Assembly: GCA_947595215.1 (NCBI GenBank)
Contig: CANQEO010000006.1
Span: forward strand, 1 to 63,326
DNA: 63,326 nucleotides
DNA from: an uncultured Bacilli bacterium
GTDB lineage: Bacteria > Bacillota_I > Bacilli_A > RFN20 > CAG-449
Reading direction: 5' to 3'
Within the stretch, counting starts at the first letter, position 1; every line of letters begins with the position of its first letter. Positions 15,336-35,240 of the stretch are shown piece after piece. The position numbers were made by a program, and so were the translations under genes. The notes beneath the pieces are model-generated. The model was not told the origin of the DNA, did not search any database, and worked only from the letters and a program-made list of their open reading frames with translations.

Positions 15336-17019
15336 ATTTTAAATCAATTTCTCTAATAGTTTTATATATAAGTTCATTAATGCTTCGCACTCTTTTTGGA
15401 TCTATTTTTATAATCTCTCTATCAAAAGTCATAATCCCATTTAATTCGTCCTCAACATCTGCAATTTGAGTATAGATAGCACCTACTAAGCCATTTTTTA
15501 TTTGAGGAACTACTTCTCTTAAATAAAGTTTTTCAAATGCATCAGTTAAAAACTTTTTATTTTTCATTTTCTTATAACCAAAGTTATGATTATTAAAGGT
15601 ATGACCATCTATTTTCAAACCATAACCACCAAATTCCGATAAAATATAAGCTCTTTTTGTTTTATCCTTTCTAAGTTTAAATTTTTTGAAATATACGTGA
15701 AAACTTCTAAAATCACCGGCACCACGATCATGCCAACCTGAGGTACTATCATAAAGTCGTGTATTATCTTTAACAGACAAATACGAGGTCATTTTTTTAC
15801 TATCAAATTGTCCCCATCCTTCATTAAAAATTGTGTAAATGATAACGCTCGGATGATTATTAAGGATATCTATAATCTCACAAGATTCTTTTAAGAAGAA
15901 GGCGCGACCCTCTTGATTTTCTCTTCCGAACTTTCGATATTGTGTATCATCGCGATGCTGTGAAGTAAACAATGGCAATTTAACTATAGTGAATTTATAT
16001 TCATCTCCACCATTGATGAAATCTTGAATTACAAGCATTCCTAACTTATCGCACAAATAATAGAAAAGTGGATGTTCTAATTTTATATGTTTTCTAATCG
16101 TGTTAAATCCCATATCTTTTAAAACTTTAATGTCTCGAAAATATTCTGTTTTATTTTTCGCAGTGTATCCACAACTATAATAACCTTGATCCAAAACACC
16201 GCTTAAAAAGATGCGCTTGTGATTTAAAGCTAGATATGTTTCCTTTTCGCAAATAACACGTTCTATTTTTCTAAAACTGAAATAAGTTTCTACTATATCG
16301 AGACCTAATTTTACCTTTGCATGGTAAAGAAAAGGATCTTCAACACTCCAAAGATGTATTTTATCAAAGATAAATATCTCCTCTTGGTTGCTGAAACCAT
16401 TTAAAACCATATCTTCAAATTCAATAGAATATGGCAAAGATTCATCGCTTTTAACTAATATTTTTAATTCTTTTTTATCAATATCTGTAATAAATTTAAT
16501 ATCTTTAATATAATTTTTCGGTACTACTTCTAAAAATACATCTTGAACTATACCACTAGAAGGAGTGTACCAAATTCCTCCACGTTTAAACTTTTGTTTA
16601 CCATAAGAATAAATCCCTTTATCTGTACTATCTTTCACTACAACTAATAACTCATTAGATCCCTTTTTTACAAAATCAGTAATATCGAATGAAAATGGAG
16701 TATATCCTCCTTCATGTGTTCCTACTTTATTATCATTAATAAAAACTTCCGACACTTGATCTACAGCAATAAAATTGATAATTAAACGTTCTTGCTCGTT
16801 TAAATCAATATTAAATTTTTTTCGGTAAAAAGCTACATCATTCTCTTCGAAAAGTAAATTGACTCCACTCGTTTTAGTTTCAATAGCATAAGGAACTTCA
16901 ATTTTACCTTGATATTTTAAATTTTTATCACAATCTTCGATCGAAATATTCCAAAGACCATTTAAAGAAACGAATTCACTACGTCTTAAATAAGGGCGAG
17001 GATAATTGATATCAATCAT
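15334..17019 (-). CDS. Glycoside hydrolase family 2 (beta-galactosidase/glucuronidase-like)
   Basis: RPYLRRSEFVSLNGLWNISIED, VFINDNKVGTHEGGYTPFSFDIT, FNEGWGQFD, ILSEFGGYGL. Confidence 0.9.
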   Translation of the reverse strand: MIDINYPRPYLRRSEFVSLNGLWNISIEDCDKNLKYQGKIEVPYAIETKTSGVNLLFEENDVAFYRKKFNIDLNEQERLIINFIAVDQVSEVFINDNKVGTHEGGYTPFSFDITDFVKKGSNELLVVVKDSTDKGIYSYGKQKFKRGGIWYTPSSGIVQDVFLEVVPKNYIKDIKFITDIDKKELKILVKSDESLPYSIEFEDMVLNGFSNQEEIFIFDKIHLWSVEDPFLYHAKVKLGLDIVETYFSFRKIERVICEKETYLALNHKRIFLSGVLDQGYYSCGYTAKNKTEYFRDIKVLKDMGFNTIRKHIKLEHPLFYYLCDKLGMLVIQDFINGGDEYKFTIVKLPLFTSQHRDDTQYRKFGRENQEGRAFFLKESCEIIDILNNHPSVIIYTIFNEGWGQFDSKKMTSYLSVKDNTRLYDSTSGWHDRGAGDFRSFHVYFKKFKLRKDKTKRAYILSEFGGYGLKIDGHTFNNHNFGYKKMKNKKFLTDAFEKLYLREVVPQIKNGLVGAIYTQIADVEDELNGIMTFDREIIKIDPKRVRSINELIYKTIREIDLK

Positions 17020-20871: not shown

Positions 20872-20947
20872 GCCGACATAGCTCAATTGGCAGAGCAATT
20901 GATTTGTAATCAATAGGTTGGCGGTTCGATTCCGTTTGTCGGCACCA
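20872..20947 (+). tRNA. tRNA-Thr (TGT), integration target
   Basis: GCCGACA...TTGAT TTTGTAA ATCAA...GGTTCGATTCC...TGTCGGCACCA; 3' part repeated at 31952-31997. Confidence 0.95.
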
Positions 20948-20948
20948 T
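20903..20948 (+). repeat. attL, 46-bp direct repeat
   Basis: TTTGTAATCAATAGGTTGGCGGTTCGATTCCGTTTGTCGGCACCAT, identical to 31952-31997. Confidence 0.95.
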
Positions 20949-21039: not shown

Positions 21040-21900
21040 TCAGTGTGTCGCAAAATCGTTCAATGGTGAATAAATATTATTTTTTAGTTGATTGTCTTTG
21101 TGGTTAATATCCAGATAGATTTGTGTCATTTCAATAGATTTATGCCCTAATAAATCTTTAACAAGATATATATCTAAAGATTTGTTATAAATCGAAGTTG
21201 CATAATAATGTCTTAATTTATGAGGACTTAGAACATCAATATTACATGTTTTCTTTAAACGCTTGAAAAATTGTCTAACTGTATTTTGTGTCATTCTCTC
21301 GTTGTGTTCATCAATAAATAAATGGTTTTATTCATTACTTGTGCAACTAAATCTTTTAACGAATCAACTATGTAGATATTTCTTGATTCTCCGTTTTTGG
21401 TAAAGTCAAGATGGATAATACCATTTTCTAAATCGATATTGCTGTTTTTAATGTGACAGAGTTCATTAGTTCTTATACCAGTAGTTAAAATTAATAGAAA
21501 CATTAGCTTGTTTTTAGGATAAACATTAGAAGTTTCAAAATAATTAAGTATTTTGCGGATAGATTCATCTTCAATATTAGGAATAGGCTTCTTAATTGTT
21601 TTAAGAGGTTCGAACCTGAAGTTAATTTTATCAATATAGTCATTTTTAATTAAATGTCTAAGCATTATTTCTAAGTATTTAATTTCTTTATTAATAGTTC
21701 CAGGTTGAATTTTGTTTTTTCTGAATAGTACGTAATTATTAATAACTTTGGTAGTAATCTGGCAAGTAGTTTCAATTTTAATAGATTTTAAATAATTAAG
21801 AATTGGTTTAAAAACACATTTGTAAGCTGATAATGTTCCTGGTCGATTGTGAATAGTAATGTGATTTAAAAATAGCGAAAAAGAAAAGCGTAAAATATCT
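21040..21900 (-). pseudogene. Tyrosine recombinase (XerC/D-type integrase), N-terminally truncated and frameshifted
   Basis: Two ORFs (21291-21665, 21040-21294) join as one integrase if one A is added at the T-run 21326-21329 (on +): ...NKNHLFIDEHNERMTQNTVRQFFKRLKK...SPHKLRHYYATSI...DLLGHKSIEMTQIYLDI; the frame stays open upstream to ~21870 (HNRPGTLSAYKCVFKPILNYLKS) without ATG/GTG/TTG start. Confidence 0.85.
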
Positions 21901-21945
21901 GATTTTTATGAAGAGCTAGATTTTAACGATGATTTACCATTTTAA
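21865..21945 (+). pseudogene. Fossil C-terminal end of a single-stranded DNA-binding protein (SSB)
   Basis: Open frame without start after a TGA: FKNSEKEKRKISDFYEELDFNDDLPF*, ending in the SSB C-terminal tip DDLPF. Confidence 0.65.
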
Positions 21946-28404: not shown

Positions 28405-28764
28405 ATGAAATTGTTAAAAAAGATCCTTTATTTAATATTGATATTGTTTGTTGTAGTAGTGGTTTGTTATTTAATTTATTCATTTACAAAATTTAATGAT
28501 AAGGGAATTGATTCAACTTATTATCTTGATAAGTATTATTTAAACGAAGATCGAACGGTCTTCGTTTATTTTGGTGATTTTGAAAAAACTAGTTTTATTG
28601 TAGTTAATGGTGATAGATCTGATGTAAATATCGATTATGAAAAAGGTTTATTTATTTTAAAATCGGAATCAGAAGAATATTATTTCGGCCAAGTAACAAG
28701 CGATATTTTATATAGTAGTAATTTTAATGATTATTTTTATAATCAAGATTTTTTTAGTCGTTGA
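28405..28764 (+). CDS. Small membrane-anchored element protein
   Basis: N-terminal TM ILYLILILFVVVVVCYLIYSF. Confidence 0.6.
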   Translation: MKLLKKILYLILILFVVVVVCYLIYSFTKFNDKGIDSTYYLDKYYLNEDRTVFVYFGDFEKTSFIVVNGDRSDVNIDYEKGLFILKSESEEYYFGQVTSDILYSSNFNDYFYNQDFFSR

Positions 28765-28786
28765 CTTACTAAAGGCGGTGGATAAA

Positions 28787-30958
28787 ATGAAATTAAAAAA
28801 TGTAATAACGAGGATAAATTTTAAAATTTTATTATGTATAACAATAACAATAGCGATATTGTTGTTATCATTGGTTTTTGAACGTTCTTTTTATCGTATT
28901 TGGGAATCGTTAAAAGATTTTGGACTTAGTATTTATTATTATTTTTGTGAACTTTTTAAAATTGATCGAGTGACAGAACCAACGATTAATTTTATTGGGC
29001 AGTATGATTTAGTGAATGATCCATTTAGTTTCATTTCTTTTGAATTTTTAAAAGCTTATTTAAGCTTAAGTTTTTCAAGCATTATTAATTTGCAATCATT
29101 AAAAGTTTTTTTAGCTTCCAGCGGAAATTTGTTATCTGATTTTTTGAAACTAATGTTAATTGTTTTACCATTGTTAATTATTTTTGTTTTTCTTTACAAA
29201 AATTATTTTAGTAGCAATGAAAAAGCGATTAATTCTGATTCACGGCCATTGAAGATTTATAAGTTCGTTAAATTTAAAATAGTAGATCAAATTGTTTATT
29301 TCTTTGAAGATTTTATGGTTTATTTAAAGGATCATCGTTATTTTTATAAAATCTGGATTGCAATTTTATTGTTTTATTTTAACTTTTATTCAGTTTTAAT
29401 TGAATTAATCGCTTTTTATTTATATTTTGTTTTTTCTTTCGACTTCGGCGGTGTTTTTATGCAATTCTATAAATTGATTCTTGATTTGTTACCACTATTT
29501 AGATTTGTTCCGTTACCTATATGGATTATTATAGGTGTTTTGTTCTTTAATCGATTTCGGAAAAAAATTGCTTATAAAATATTGATGCATCATGAGATGA
29601 TGAATCGAGGTTTAATTAATGAGCTAGGATTGTCATCGTTGATATGTTCACCTATGGGTAAAGGCAAGACTACTTTATTGACGGATATTGGACTTTCTCA
29701 ATCAATAATGTTTCGTGATGTCGCATTTCAAAAGCTTTTAGAAAATGATTTGAAATTTCCTAATTTTACTTTTTCTGTTTTTGAAAAAGAAATAAAGCGA
29801 GCTATAAGCGATCATGAAATCTATAATTTGGCTACTTGCGAAAAGTGGATCAAATTGAAAGAATCAGAGTTTAAAAAAAGCGGAAATTTGTTTGATTACG
29901 ATTATTTAAGATATGGTCTTTATTATTACGACGGGTGCAAAGAAATTTCTATTTTTGAAATGCTTAATAATTATGTTAAATTGTTTTTTATTTATGCGAT
30001 GGAATCTAGCTTGATGATTACTAATTACTCTGTTCGTGAAGATAATGTATTAGATGACATCGGATTTTTTCCTCGATGGCATAGTGATTTTTTTAGTAGT
30101 AATCCAGAATATATGGAAGCTTATTCCAGGCACTCTCATATTCTAGATTTTGATATGCTCCGTTTAGGTAAAACAGTTGTTGAAAATAATAAATATCGTG
30201 ACGCATTTGAATTTGGTGTAGTATTAATCACCGAAGGCGGAAAAGAACGAGGGAATATGCTCGATAATCGAGGAGTTAAAAAAGATTCGGAAAATGCGAA
30301 TCAGTTAAACGATTTGTTTAACTCTTGGTTAAAGATGGTCCGACATAGTGCAACGGTCGATAATTATCCGTTTGTGAAAGTTATCTTTGATGAACAAAGG
30401 CCAGAATCATTAGGGGCTGACGCACGTGAAGTTTGCGAAAAGATCATTTTTATCGAAGAGAAAAAAGCAACGCAGACTCCATTGATGTTGTTTGGGCTGG
30501 AGACAATGATTTATGATTTTTTTAATGAACGTTTAAGTAATATTTATTCTAATTATCGTTATTATCGCGGTGATAACACTTTGTTTATGTATTTATTAAA
30601 AAGCCTGTGGTCTAAATATTCACATTATTATGAACGTTTAAAAAATGTTTTTAGCTATCACAAATTGATTTTGTCTAGTCAAAAAGGAACTCTGGACGGA
30701 ACTGTTGGATCTAGTAAGTATTATATTAGTCATAAAAAGATCTATTCTAAGAGATTTGCAACTAATGCTTTTAATGATTATTTTATGCAAAAATCGATAT
30801 TGTCGGAAATCGGATTAAATGACATTCCAGAGTTTGAAAGTGAATCTGCAACGCTTGAAGAACTAGCAAGTGAAAATTCGTATTTTATTCGTGAACTGAT
30901 AAGAATCAGAAGTGAGCAAAATAAAAATATGAATAATCAAGAAAAAGATGAAATATGA
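28787..30958 (+). CDS. Multi-TM P-loop ATPase, FtsK/HerA superfamily-like (Zot/pI-like or DNA-translocase-like)
   Basis: N-terminal TM helices, Walker A SPMGKGKTTL, FGVVLITEGGKERGN, then RHSATVDNYPFVKVIFDEQRPESLGADAREVCEKIIFIEE; ATG 28787 with SD-like GGCGGTGG. Confidence 0.75.
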   Translation: MKLKNVITRINFKILLCITITIAILLLSLVFERSFYRIWESLKDFGLSIYYYFCELFKIDRVTEPTINFIGQYDLVNDPFSFISFEFLKAYLSLSFSSIINLQSLKVFLASSGNLLSDFLKLMLIVLPLLIIFVFLYKNYFSSNEKAINSDSRPLKIYKFVKFKIVDQIVYFFEDFMVYLKDHRYFYKIWIAILLFYFNFYSVLIELIAFYLYFVFSFDFGGVFMQFYKLILDLLPLFRFVPLPIWIIIGVLFFNRFRKKIAYKILMHHEMMNRGLINELGLSSLICSPMGKGKTTLLTDIGLSQSIMFRDVAFQKLLENDLKFPNFTFSVFEKEIKRAISDHEIYNLATCEKWIKLKESEFKKSGNLFDYDYLRYGLYYYDGCKEISIFEMLNNYVKLFFIYAMESSLMITNYSVREDNVLDDIGFFPRWHSDFFSSNPEYMEAYSRHSHILDFDMLRLGKTVVENNKYRDAFEFGVVLITEGGKERGNMLDNRGVKKDSENANQLNDLFNSWLKMVRHSATVDNYPFVKVIFDEQRPESLGADAREVCEKIIFIEEKKATQTPLMLFGLETMIYDFFNERLSNIYSNYRYYRGDNTLFMYLLKSLWSKYSHYYERLKNVFSYHKLILSSQKGTLDGTVGSSKYYISHKKIYSKRFATNAFNDYFMQKSILSEIGLNDIPEFESESATLEELASENSYFIRELIRIRSEQNKNMNNQEKDEI

Positions 30959-30988: not shown

Positions 30989-31071
30989 AACTCACAGCAG
31001 TCGCTGTCAAGCGGCAAGTAAAACGATACGCCGTTAGGGCAACGCTTGACAGCTTAAGACTGCTGTGAGTT
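30989..31071. repeat. Long two-segment hairpin, candidate origin or packaging signal
   Basis: AACTCACAGCAGTC/GACTGCTGTGAGTT (14 bp) and GCTGTCAAGCG/CGCTTGACAGC (11 bp), 29-nt loop, 4-nt bulge. Confidence 0.9.
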
Positions 31072-31076
31072 ATAAT
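31046..31076 (+). promoter_or_regulatory. Putative promoter overlapping the hairpin right arm
   Basis: TTGACA (31046-31051), 19-nt spacer, TATAAT (31071-31076). Confidence 0.45.
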
Positions 31077-31302
31077 ACAAAAGGCGCGAAAAGACAAAAG
31101 TAAAAAAGAAAAGAAGAACCTAAAAAGATGTAAGTCGAGTAAAAGCTCCATGTGGTTATGGGGAGGAGTGAGGTCCTTAGGTAGACTTAAAAAAAGAGCC
31201 ATTAGCCAAAAATACTTGACTAATAGCAAAAGATTTTTTAAAATAAAATCACTTCTTTAAGGTTATTCTAATTGAATTCTTAAAGAAAGTGATTATTACT
31301 TT

Positions 31303-31341
31303 AGAGCCGTTGATGGTGAGTGTGAGAACGGCTCTTTTTTT
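31303..31341 (+). terminator. Terminator hairpin
   Basis: AGAGCCGTT/AACGGCTCT + T-run; structural counterpart with changed base pair at 60224-60256. Confidence 0.8.
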
Positions 31342-31363
31342 AATCTTTTTCTTTTTCATCTTA

Positions 31364-31476
31364 GGTTCTCCTTTCAATAAGGGTAAAAACAAACAAAATT
31401 AGATTAGGTTGTCAATATATCTGTTTGTATTTACGGCCTCATCTAATTTTGTATAATCCTAAAAAAAAGGAGAACC
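31364..31476. repeat. Nested long inverted repeat in element right end
   Basis: GGTTCTCCTTT/AAAGGAGAACC outer; AAAATTAGATTAGG/CCTCATCTAATTTT (13 of 14) inner. Confidence 0.75.
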
Positions 31477-31489
31477 GAAAAAGGAAAAG

Positions 31490-31561
31490 ATGGAACAGTC
31501 TAAGGGCAATAAAATGAAATGTGGAGCGTATGAAATACAAATTAATATTAATCGAAAATAA
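31490..31561 (+). CDS. Possible 23-codon mini-ORF
   Basis: TATAAT at ~31452, GGAAAAG SD-like, ATG GAA CAG...CGA AAA TAA (MEQSKGNKMKCGAYEIQININRK), followed by terminator. Confidence 0.3.
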   Translation: MEQSKGNKMKCGAYEIQININRK

Positions 31562-31605
31562 AAAAATAAGGGCAGAAGCGGTTTAGCGGCCCTTATTTTT
31601 TTTCG
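31557..31605 (+). terminator. Terminator hairpin
   Basis: AAATAAGGGC...GCCCTTATTTTTTTT; also found inverted at ~59180-59226. Confidence 0.8.
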
Positions 31606-31682
31606 ATTAGCGAAAAAATTTTTTTAAATATCCGTCAACTGAATATATCGTATGTTAATTTTTTTTGAGGTGGTAAAAATGT

Positions 31683-31958
31683 ATGTTTACTGGCAGAAAT
31701 ATCCGTAGTAAGAACGAGATATTAGTTTATATGATAATCGAATTACTTGTAGAAGGCTTTTTAGATCCACAGGAATTAAGAAATCAGTTTAATATAACAT
31801 CGTTGACACTATATAGATATATGTCGCTTATTAAGAATGTAATATTTGATTTCGATTATCACTATATTGATGTTTACTATGATCGTAAAGTTAAGATTTA
31901 TAGATGTAAATTTCTCACAAACTATCACTTCATGGATAGCGAAAAAAACGTTTTGTAA
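31683..31958 (+). CDS. Small helix-turn-helix protein, putative regulator/excisionase
   Basis: VYMIIELLVEGFLDPQELRNQFNITSLTLYRYMSLI HTH-like; abuts attR. Confidence 0.5.
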   Translation: MFTGRNIRSKNEILVYMIIELLVEGFLDPQELRNQFNITSLTLYRYMSLIKNVIFDFDYHYIDVYYDRKVKIYRCKFLTNYHFMDSEKNVL

Positions 31959-31997
31959 TCAATAGGTTGGCGGTTCGATTCCGTTTGTCGGCACCAT
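31952..31997 (+). repeat. attR, 46-bp direct repeat
   Basis: Identical to 20903-20948. Confidence 0.95.
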
Positions 31998-32080: not shown

Positions 32081-34345
32081 CTATTTAAGATTTTGATTTT
32101 CTAAAGTTTTTTCAAATCCTCTCCATGGATCTTTTTTTAGCCGCGATTCTATATTGAAATAAGTAATATCATCTGGAGCTATCTTATTTAGCTCATTCCA
32201 AGATATAGGTGCTGACACACTCGCGTTTTCTTTAGCACGAAGCGAATAAGGGGCAACACTTGTAGCGCCTTTTTTATTTCGCAACCAATCAACGAATATT
32301 TTTCCTTTTCTCGCACTTTTTTTATTATTAGTGGTATATCGATCCGGATATTTATTTTCCATAAGTAAAGCAACATCTTTAGCAAAAGACGAAAACTTAG
32401 ACCAACTATTACACGATAATGGAACTACGACATGATATCCCTTACCACCACTCGTCTTCAAAAAAGATTTTAGATTAAAATCATCTAGTATTTTTTTTAA
32501 ATCTTTAACACCTTGACGAATAGTATTTATTGACAACCCTTCATCAGGATCTAAGTCAAAGACCATATAGTTTGGTTTTGTTAATTTATTATAGAAGTTT
32601 GCCCACACATGAAATTCAATAGTACCATTCTGTACTTCATTAATAAGACCATTTAATGAAGTGATAGCAAAATATTCTTTTTTATTGTTTTCTTCTTTGA
32701 TATTGAAAATTTTTATTCCCGCGATTTTTTTCTCGGGATGTTTTTTTATATATCCTAAAGTGATGTTTTCATGACAGCGATAAACAGAAAGTGGGCGATT
32801 ACTGATTAAAGGCAACATTTTTTCGCTTACCATTCGATAATAATCCACAATATTTTGCTTTGTAATTTTTAATTTAGGATAAACTATACGATCCGGAGAA
32901 GTTATTTCTATAATATTATCTTTTGCTAAGTTTTTTAAATCTTTATCATAACGTATTCCCTTATAACTAGCTTGTCTTAATAACCCGCTTGATGTGAGTT
33001 CGGCAAATTCAATCTCTGCAAATAAAGAAGGTTTTAAAAATATTACATTTTTATCAATCTTAGTAGTTGATATAAATGATGGTTTTTTAACAGCTAATGC
33101 TTTAAATTTTTTTAATAGATCTTGATGATTCTTAATTCCGGTACCAACTTTACCTCGATATTTTAATGCACCATTTTCGTATTGAGCTAGTAACAATGAT
33201 TTTATCTTTTCTTTTTCAACCATTGAAAGATTATATCCTACAATATAATACTCATCACTTTTACGACATTTAAGTTTAATCCAGTTACCGCTACGACGAC
33301 CTAAATATTGTGAATCTTTTTTCTTACCGATTATCCCCTCTAGGTTTAGTTTTTCGGCTTTTTCGAAAAATACTTTCCCATCGCCTTCAATATGTTCACT
33401 ATATACAATAGAATTTAATTTTTTATGTTTATTAAAAAGTGATTTAAGCAATTTTTTTCTTTTAATTAACTCGTATCCTCTCAAATCTTTTCCATCTAAA
33501 GCAATCAAATCAAAAACAACATAAGTTAAATCATTTCTTTTATGTTTAATCGATTCCTGTAATGCGCTAAAATCACTTTTCCCGTTATCGTCGCACTTTA
33601 TTACTTCACCATCTAAAATCATGACTCTACTATTTGAAAATTCTAGTAATTCTTTTGAAATACTAGCAAATTTATCAGTGTAATCTTGTTTATTGCGAGT
33701 CAACATTTTTATTTTATTCTTTTCTATTATAGTAACTATTCTATAACCATCGTACTTTATTTCATATAGCCAACCATTTTCAGATGGAATCTCTTCAGAT
33801 AATAACGCCAATTCTACACTAAATGATGAAAATGGATTTGTGTATTTGATATTATTTATAGTGGTTTTATTTTTAATCATAGATTCTTTTTCTTTTATGA
33901 TGAGCCAGTTTTTTTCATCCATTCTGACTAATGCATATTTGCCTTTAACTTTACTCCCAAATAATTCAAATTTGATCATTCCTTCTTTTAAGCCATTATT
34001 TATAGGTGTTAAAGGCTCCCATAAACCTTGGTCGTAAATCTCTACTATTCCAGCACCATATTCCCCTTCAGGAATTTCTCCTTCAAAATCTTTGTAATCG
34101 TAAGGATGATCTTCTACTCTTATAGCAAGTCTTTTATCTTTTGGATTAGATGCTAATCCCTTAGGTATCGCCCAACTTAAAAGCACACCACGCCATTCAA
34201 GTCTAAAATCATAATGCTCACGTTTAGAAAAATGATGTTGAATGACAAAAATTCTTTTCTTACTACTTTTTACAATTTTTCCCAAAGGTTCTTTTGTTTT
34301 GGCAAAATCTCTTTTGCTTTTATATTTATGCAATCTCATATTCAT
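32081..34345 (-). CDS. ligD: ATP-dependent DNA ligase LigD (phosphoesterase-ligase-polymerase)
   Basis: PE domain FVIQHHFSKREHYDFRLEWRGVLLSWAIPKG; ligase WLYEIKYDGYRI and DGEVIKCD; primase-pol FDLDPDEGLS and KTSGGKGYHVVVPL. Confidence 0.95.
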   Translation of the reverse strand: MNMRLHKYKSKRDFAKTKEPLGKIVKSSKKRIFVIQHHFSKREHYDFRLEWRGVLLSWAIPKGLASNPKDKRLAIRVEDHPYDYKDFEGEIPEGEYGAGIVEIYDQGLWEPLTPINNGLKEGMIKFELFGSKVKGKYALVRMDEKNWLIIKEKESMIKNKTTINNIKYTNPFSSFSVELALLSEEIPSENGWLYEIKYDGYRIVTIIEKNKIKMLTRNKQDYTDKFASISKELLEFSNSRVMILDGEVIKCDDNGKSDFSALQESIKHKRNDLTYVVFDLIALDGKDLRGYELIKRKKLLKSLFNKHKKLNSIVYSEHIEGDGKVFFEKAEKLNLEGIIGKKKDSQYLGRRSGNWIKLKCRKSDEYYIVGYNLSMVEKEKIKSLLLAQYENGALKYRGKVGTGIKNHQDLLKKFKALAVKKPSFISTTKIDKNVIFLKPSLFAEIEFAELTSSGLLRQASYKGIRYDKDLKNLAKDNIIEITSPDRIVYPKLKITKQNIVDYYRMVSEKMLPLISNRPLSVYRCHENITLGYIKKHPEKKIAGIKIFNIKEENNKKEYFAITSLNGLINEVQNGTIEFHVWANFYNKLTKPNYMVFDLDPDEGLSINTIRQGVKDLKKILDDFNLKSFLKTSGGKGYHVVVPLSCNSWSKFSSFAKDVALLMENKYPDRYTTNNKKSARKGKIFVDWLRNKKGATSVAPYSLRAKENASVSAPISWNELNKIAPDDITYFNIESRLKKDPWRGFEKTLENQNLK

Positions 34346-34424
34346 AAATTTAGTATTAAAGATTTATCATCAGATATTCAGTATAAAGAATAATTTTTTT
34401 GAGAAACTATAAATGAGGTTTAAT

Positions 34425-35240
34425 ATGGCTTATAGTTTTAAAAGTAATTTAAGTTTTGGATTTGTTTATATCCCAATCACATTGCATCTAATTGTTAAAG
34501 AAAATACCCCCTCTTTTAAACTTTTTGATAAAAAAACTAAATCCAAGATACAGTATAAAAAAACATGTGATGATTGCGCCGGACGAGAAGTTTCTAATCA
34601 GAATATCGTTAAAGGATACGAATACTCAGACGGAAAATATGTTTTATTTAATGATGAGGATTTCGAAAAGATAAAAACACAACGCGATAAAAACATTAAC
34701 TTAGATCAATTTATAAATATTGAAGAAGTAGATCCAATTTGGTATAAAAAATCTTATTATATCGTTCCTACAAGTTCCGATAAAGCTTATAATTTATTAG
34801 TTAAGGCAATGGAACAAGAAAAAAAAGCTGGTATAGGTAAAACTGTATTAGGATCTAAAGAATCAATAGTTCTAGTACGCGCTAAAGATGGAGTACTGAT
34901 TTTATCAACTCTATATTTTAAAGATGAAATTAAAGATATTCCTTATAACAAAGAAAGTATAAGTGTTACTACATCAGAATTAAAAATTGCCAAAATGATC
35001 ATTAAAGAGATGGTCTCACCATTTAAACCAGAACAATACCATGATGAATATAATAAAAAAATTCAAGATGCGATAAAGAAAAAGATTAAAGGTCAAAAAA
35101 TTGTTACACCAAAAGAAAAAAGACAAAACCAAATCACCGATTTAATGAAAGCATTAAAAACTAGTTTGGATGACATTAATAAAGGCAAAAAAGCAAAACC
35201 TACTTCTAAAAAGAAAATTTCGCCAAATAATTTTGCATAA
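34425..35240 (+). CDS. ku: Ku protein (NHEJ)
   Basis: SFKSNLSFGFVYIPITLHLIV...KYVLFNDEDFEKI; Lys-rich tail; divergent from ligD. Confidence 0.93.
   Translation: MAYSFKSNLSFGFVYIPITLHLIVKENTPSFKLFDKKTKSKIQYKKTCDDCAGREVSNQNIVKGYEYSDGKYVLFNDEDFEKIKTQRDKNINLDQFINIEEVDPIWYKKSYYIVPTSSDKAYNLLVKAMEQEKKAGIGKTVLGSKESIVLVRAKDGVLILSTLYFKDEIKDIPYNKESISVTTSELKIAKMIIKEMVSPFKPEQYHDEYNKKIQDAIKKKIKGQKIVTPKEKRQNQITDLMKALKTSLDDINKGKKAKPTSKKKISPNNFA

What the first reader, a model, noticed from the sequence alone, without database searches (positions are those of the whole stretch)
30989..31076. Exceptional two-segment hairpin overlapping a promoter: candidate ssDNA origin, packaging signal or oriT
Perfect 14-bp and 11-bp stems are separated by a 4-nt bulge, with a 29-nt loop. 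The right arm contains TTGACA within the inner stem, and TATAAT sits at the hairpin base (19-nt spacing). In single-stranded form the -35 would be double stranded. This parallels known single-strand initiation promoters (F-plasmid Frpo, M13 complementary-strand origin, sso of RCR plasmids) and filamentous-phage packaging hairpins. It lies directly after the ATPase gene in a ~700-bp non-coding region.
Basis: partly seen in the sequence, partly recalled or inferred. Interest (0 to 1): 0.8.

Follow-up and report, generated by a model that had tools for sequence, protein, structure and literature searches.

The report
Probable single-strand replication origin hairpin
The hairpin is real and belongs to a conserved, covarying DNA structure shared by small rolling-circle plasmids, a filamentous-phage genome, integrating elements and some tailed phages, most likely the site where a single DNA strand is turned back into double-stranded DNA; the copy here sits in a broken 11-kb integrated element.

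Summary
The hairpin is exactly as described (14-bp + 11-bp arms, TTAA bulge, 29-nt loop; fold z = -6.5). It lies in an 11,049-bp element integrated in a tRNA-Thr gene (46-bp repeats). The conserved part is the inner stem plus a near-invariant loop, CGATACGCCGTTAGGGCA, forming a three-way junction. I found 26 members: lactobacillary rolling-circle plasmids with two unrelated Rep/dso types, a circular inovirus-like genome, integrative elements, Lachnospiraceae elements and tailed phages. Stems covary strongly (63 two-sided changes; 0/500 shuffles) with only 1.4% G-T pairs, as expected of folded DNA. On ten plasmids the motif is always on the dso-nick strand and separate from the dso; one plasmid has its own MOBQ oriT elsewhere. 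Best reading: a single-strand (complementary-strand) origin, apparently of a new class: absent from pT181 (ssoA), pUB110 (ssoU), pTA1060 (ssoT), a lactococcal pMV158-family plasmid, Tn925 and pAMbeta1; ssoL could not be tested. The window's element is a deletion derivative that keeps only about the last 25 codons of Rep. No activity was tested.

The parts
31003..31053 (+). conserved motif: putative single-strand origin (P1 stem, P2, P3, invariant loop)
   Evidence: covariance model R1, 67.3 bits, match 31001-31057; covariation
31003..31013 (+). P1 left arm GCTGTCAAGCG
31043..31053 (+). P1 right arm CGCTTGACAGC, contains TTGACA 31046-31051
31018..31024 (+). P2, short variable hairpin (GT-AAA-AC here)
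   Evidence: both pairs covary in the alignment
31024..31041 (+). near-invariant core CGATACGCCGTTAGGGCA including P3 (GCC-GTTAG-GGC, 31030-31040)
   Evidence: exact or near-exact in plasmids, phages and integrative elements
30989..31002 (+). outer stem left arm, an extension not shared as sequence by relatives
31058..31071 (+). outer stem right arm
31071..31076 (+). TATAAT at the hairpin base; not conserved, probably incidental
28727..30958 (+). membrane ATPase gene (743 aa), orphan family with homologues in related genomes
21868..21945 (+). remnant of the rep gene: last ~25 codons, tail KRKISDFYEELDFNDDLPF
   Evidence: resembles the Rep tail KRKISDLFIPEDLPF of L061, 52% over 25 aa, E = 0.15, same place in the element
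21043..21881 (-). tyrosine integrase, N-terminus missing and interrupted by a stop
20903..20948 (+). 46-bp direct repeat, tRNA-Thr end of the element
31952..31997 (+). 46-bp direct repeat, far end of the element
31683..31958 (+). 91-aa protein, 60% identical homologue in the syntenic element L061

Best explanation
The inner half of the hairpin (31003-31053) is a single-strand origin (sso, complementary-strand origin). When the element is excised and replicated by a rolling-circle initiator, or arrives as ssDNA, the coding strand is exposed and folds into a three-way junction (P1 with two small hairpins P2 and P3). A host priming machinery (RNA polymerase, or PriA/primosome with DnaG) recognises the junction and primes second-strand synthesis. 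Shown here: the conserved fold, its covariation, its modular spread over replicons that make ssDNA, its fixed strand relative to the dso, and its separation from dso and oriT. Inferred: the priming activity and which host factor acts. In the window the element has lost Rep, so the site is now a relic or can work only with a Rep supplied in trans.
For: Covarying fold: 25 members, 63 two-sided changes, covariation score 0.434 against 0.107 in shuffles (0/500); also in the MAFFT-only 16-member alignment. Watson-Crick pairs almost only, 5 G-T of 355. Present on ten small plasmids with two unrelated Rep/dso types, always on the strand of the dso nick sequence and away from the dso. Present on a circular 4.9-kb contig with Zot, Gp8-like coat and Rep_OBD. 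In L060 it stands between the ATPase gene and a Rep_trans gene. The syntenic relative L061/L024 has motif and Rep. pLa3_2 has a separate MOBQ oriT.
Against: No activity test. Only one of the ATPase-bearing relatives checked (L024) also carries the motif. It also occurs in tailed phages with terminases that need not use rolling-circle replication. The ten plasmids are related in part, so the strand agreement is fewer than ten independent cases. The window element lacks Rep.
Confidence: 0.68

Rival explanations
1. A more general single-strand initiation or primosome-loading site (ssi/PAS type) that also serves theta-replicating phages and plasmids; second-strand priming on RCR elements is only one of its uses.
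For: Carriers include tailed-phage contigs with terminase genes and pCY186, a 186-kb plasmid; an SSB gene lies near the motif in L093; promoter hexamers are not conserved.
Against: Most confirmed carriers with known replication type are rolling-circle; pAMbeta1, which has a known primosome assembly site (PMC5703833), lacks the motif.
Confidence: 0.12
2. It is a transfer origin (oriT or oriT mimic) nicked by a relaxase supplied in trans by a conjugative element.
For: Hairpin near a conserved core on mobile elements; the reverse complement TGCCCTAACGG resembles part of the MOBQ nick region GTGCGCCCTTA found in pLa3_2.
Against: pLa3_2 has its own canonical MOBQ oriT away from the motif; strand is fixed relative to the dso; also on an inovirus-like genome and tailed phages.
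Confidence: 0.07
3. It is a structured RNA (leader, antisense or regulatory RNA).
For: Conserved loops and covarying helices are also typical of RNA.
Against: Only 1.4% G-T pairs; orientation to the nearest gene differs between groups (same as rep on plasmids, opposite to the DUF5688 and 95-aa genes in L052, L056, L063, L088); no Rfam match.
Confidence: 0.06
4. It is a filamentous-phage packaging signal.
For: It lies directly after an ATPase gene in the window and in L060, and is on an inovirus-like genome.
Against: It is on at least ten small plasmids without virion genes; only one ATPase-bearing relative checked also has it.
Confidence: 0.03

Closest known systems
Single-strand origins of Gram-positive rolling-circle plasmids (ssoA, ssoU, ssoT, ssoW, ssoL; listed in PMC5703833)
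   Same: Non-coding imperfect hairpin, one strand only, separate from the dso, modular between Rep families
   Different: Core and three-way junction not found in pT181, pUB110, pTA1060 or the lactococcal pEPSC10 (best 17.2 bits against 44.7 or more for members); ssoL not compared
sso of integrative elements: ICEBs1 sso1 (PMC4595007) and Tn916 sso (PMC9154091)
   Same: sso carried by an integrated element that replicates by rolling circle with a Rep_trans-type relaxase
   Different: No match in Tn925 of pCF10; ICEBs1 sso1 is reported to resemble pBAA1/ssoT-type, and the ssoT plasmid pTA1060 has no match
M13/f1 complementary-strand origin and F-plasmid Frpo (from general knowledge)
   Same: ssDNA hairpin that would start complementary-strand synthesis
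   Different: Promoter hexamers not conserved here; no sequence likeness was tested
Primosome assembly site ssiA of pAMbeta1
   Same: Structured single-strand initiation signal
   Different: Motif not detected in pAMbeta1

Membership tests
sso (general) | non-coding imperfect hairpin in the ssDNA form | tested here: met
sso (general) | carried by rolling-circle replicons, separate from the dso, on the leading (nicked) strand | tested here: met
   ten of ten plasmids with a recognisable dso
sso (general) | orientation-dependent conversion of ssDNA to dsDNA | not testable with these tools
   needs an in-vivo or in-vitro assay
ssoA / ssoU / ssoT | sequence and fold shared with pT181 / pUB110 / pTA1060 | tested here: not met
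   no core at 4 edits or fewer; model scores 17.2 bits or less
ssoW | sequence shared with pWV01 | tested here: inconclusive
   pWV01 not held; proxy lactococcal plasmid pEPSC10 negative
ssoL | sequence shared with the published ssoL | not tested
   no sequence found in the held papers
MOBQ oriT | TAAGTGCGCCCT nick region next to an inverted repeat, near a mob gene | tested here: not met
   no such site in the window element; pLa3_2 has one elsewhere
ssDNA promoter (Frpo / M13-type) | conserved -35 and -10 at suitable spacing | tested here: not met
   TATAAT only in the window, 5/6 in one other of 25
Rho-independent terminator | G+C-rich stem with short loop followed by a T run | tested here: not met
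   29-nt loop; stem followed by ATAATACAA

The most novel reading that the evidence does not exclude
A new, widespread class of DNA three-way-junction initiation site recognised by a conserved host replication factor, shared by rolling-circle plasmids, inoviruses, integrative elements and tailed phages of gut Bacillota and relatives, independent of promoter sequences.
Probability: 0.4. Interest if true: 0.75.

Novelty: new variant of a known kind. Interest (0 to 1): 0.6.

Why it matters
How the second strand is primed is unknown for most rolling-circle elements and for inoviruses outside the model Gram-negative hosts. A short motif with a searchable covariance model would give a direct handle on this, mark ssDNA-making replicons in metagenomes, and let the host factor be identified with ordinary plasmid assays.

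Tried and rejected
Close-relative search of IMG/VR with the ATPase gave nothing. The ATPase has no Pfam, PHROG or PDB sequence match of note and only weak fold matches, so the element could not be filed as an inovirus on that gene. BLAST with one consensus motif found no phage record; a second consensus found MT839987. Four of the nine exact core matches in GTDB contigs (Methylococcaceae, a gammaproteobacterium, Mesorhizobium, Methanomethylicus) and IMG/VR L042 lack the CAAG/CTTG stem and were dropped as chance. I first took the tail DFNDDLPF for an SSB C-terminus; it resembles the Rep tail of L061 instead. G006 (24.5 bits) and G402 (28.2 bits) were left out as doubtful. pMV158 and pWV01 records are not held.

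Full report
Observation. Every stated feature of the hairpin is present: perfect 14-bp and 11-bp arms, TTAA bulge, 29-nt loop, TTGACA in the right inner arm, TATAAT at the base with a 19-nt spacer. As DNA it folds to -29.9 kcal/mol, 6.5 standard deviations below dinucleotide shuffles. It starts about 30 nt after the stop codon of a 743-aa membrane ATPase gene, in a gap of about 724 bp.

Host element. The hairpin lies in an 11,049-bp element in a tRNA-Thr gene with 46-bp identical ends. Apart from a broken tyrosine integrase, its proteins have no convincing family match. The ATPase has homologues in 15 of 147 related genomes, the own genome included, and in one phage record. In many of these relatives the gene after the ATPase, or elsewhere in the element, is a rolling-circle initiator: G2P-type in L022 (and, by PHROG, L023), Rep_trans in L025 and L031, Rep_OBD with an RNA_helicase-family ATPase domain in L061. 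L061 shares the window's layout (integrase on the minus strand, membrane proteins, ATPase, motif, 91-aa protein) and has an intact Rep upstream. In the window only about the last 25 codons of what is most likely that Rep remain (a short match, E = 0.15, supported by position), next to an N-terminally truncated integrase. The window element is therefore read as a deletion derivative. The ATPase model (mean pLDDT 70.8) resembles HerA/FtsK-type packaging ATPases and Zot only weakly.

The conserved unit. Searching for the loop sequence CGATACGCCGTTAGGGCA showed that the conserved unit is the inner stem plus loop, not the outer 14-bp stem. Members were found in G107 (the syntenic relative), G043 and four Lachnospiraceae contigs, in plasmid pCY186 and a 2,676-bp Ligilactobacillus plasmid, in ten further lactobacillary or gut plasmids, in seven IMG/VR contigs, in a 4.9-kb contig of G040 and in MT839987. 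The consensus fold is P1 (about 10 bp, its distal part varying freely), a GRCAAG linker, P2 of very variable length, and P3 = GCC-GT(T)AG-GGC.

Is the fold real? In 16 members 9 of 15 pairs show compensatory changes. In 25 members, aligned to the model, there are 63 two-sided changes, a covariation score of 0.434 against 0.107 in shuffles (0/500) and at most 0.075 when partners are slid. That alignment leans towards the model, but the first was made by MAFFT without structure and says the same. Only 1.4% of pairs are G-T, which fits selection on folded DNA better than on RNA (that RNA helices usually carry clearly more G-U is my own knowledge). The model is specific: 5 of 393 related genomes match at E <= 0.001, one of them weakly.

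What the carriers share. The plasmids use two unrelated initiator/dso types: pMV158-type Rep_OBD with GGGGGGTACTACGACACCCCCC, and pC194/pUB110-type Rep_1 with CTTATCTTGATACTATATAG. In all ten plasmids with a recognisable dso the motif is on the strand of the dso nick sequence and elsewhere on the molecule. The G040 contig (55-bp terminal repeat, so probably circular) encodes Zot, a Gp8-like coat protein and Rep_OBD, and carries the motif on its coding strand. L060 has ATPase, motif, a GTAATACCC hairpin, Rep_trans and integrase in that order. MT839987 has what reads by eye as a Rep_trans initiator and a Tn916-like integrase. The common denominator is a single-stranded stage of replication. Modular, strand-fixed and distinct from dso and oriT is what is expected of an sso.

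Why not the alternatives. The -10 hexamer is not shared and the -35 changes with the stem, so the promoter is most likely incidental in the window; RNA-polymerase priming of another kind is not excluded. oriT: pLa3_2 carries a canonical MOBQ oriT elsewhere. RNA element: nearly pure Watson-Crick covariation, inconsistent orientation to neighbouring genes, no Rfam match. Packaging: present on non-viral plasmids.

Limits. Tailed-phage carriers (terminases in L088 and L091) suggest that the site may be a broader single-strand initiation or primosome-loading signal; that is kept as a rival. Plasmids with known ssoA, ssoU and ssoT, a Tn916-type element and pAMbeta1 do not carry it; ssoW was tested only by a proxy plasmid and ssoL not at all. 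No text in the held literature contains the core sequence, but figures and most subscription papers are not held. No function has been shown experimentally, and the copy in this window sits in a defective element.

Noticed in passing
L025, L028, L031, L032, L033, L039, L040, within about 100 nt after the ATPase stop: A different strong hairpin (GGGGGGTnAGTAATACCCCCC and covarying versions) at the 5' end of Rep_trans-type genes; probably the dso of these elements.
   Followed up: partly
L085 (G040:C51, 4928 nt): Contig with a 55-bp terminal repeat that encodes Zot, a Gp8-like coat protein and a Rep_OBD initiator: a probably complete inovirus-like genome in a member of the same order.
   Followed up: partly
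L061 about 15862-16923 (minus strand): 353-aa initiator with Rep_OBD and RNA_helicase-family (helicase) domains and an EDLPF tail like that of SSB proteins.
   Followed up: partly
window 31393-31452: Second inverted repeat (ACAAAATTAGATTAGG ... CCTCATCTAATTTTGT) followed by TATAAT; its role is unknown.
   Followed up: no
window 31100-31680: The rest of the non-coding gap folds into long-range structure with repeated AGAACC boxes and terminator-like stems; unexplained.
   Followed up: no
window 32081-35240: Divergent LigD-like (754 aa) and Ku-like (275 aa) genes, by eye a bacterial end-joining pair, border the element.
   Followed up: no
L052, L056, L063, L088-L090, L092: In these carriers the motif sits at the tip of a much longer imperfect hairpin (56-76 enclosing pairs), while most plasmids have only 10-16.
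   Followed up: partly
L088, L089, L092: Three phage contigs share a motif position just upstream of a homologous gene of about 95 aa that has no Pfam match (tested in L088).
   Followed up: partly
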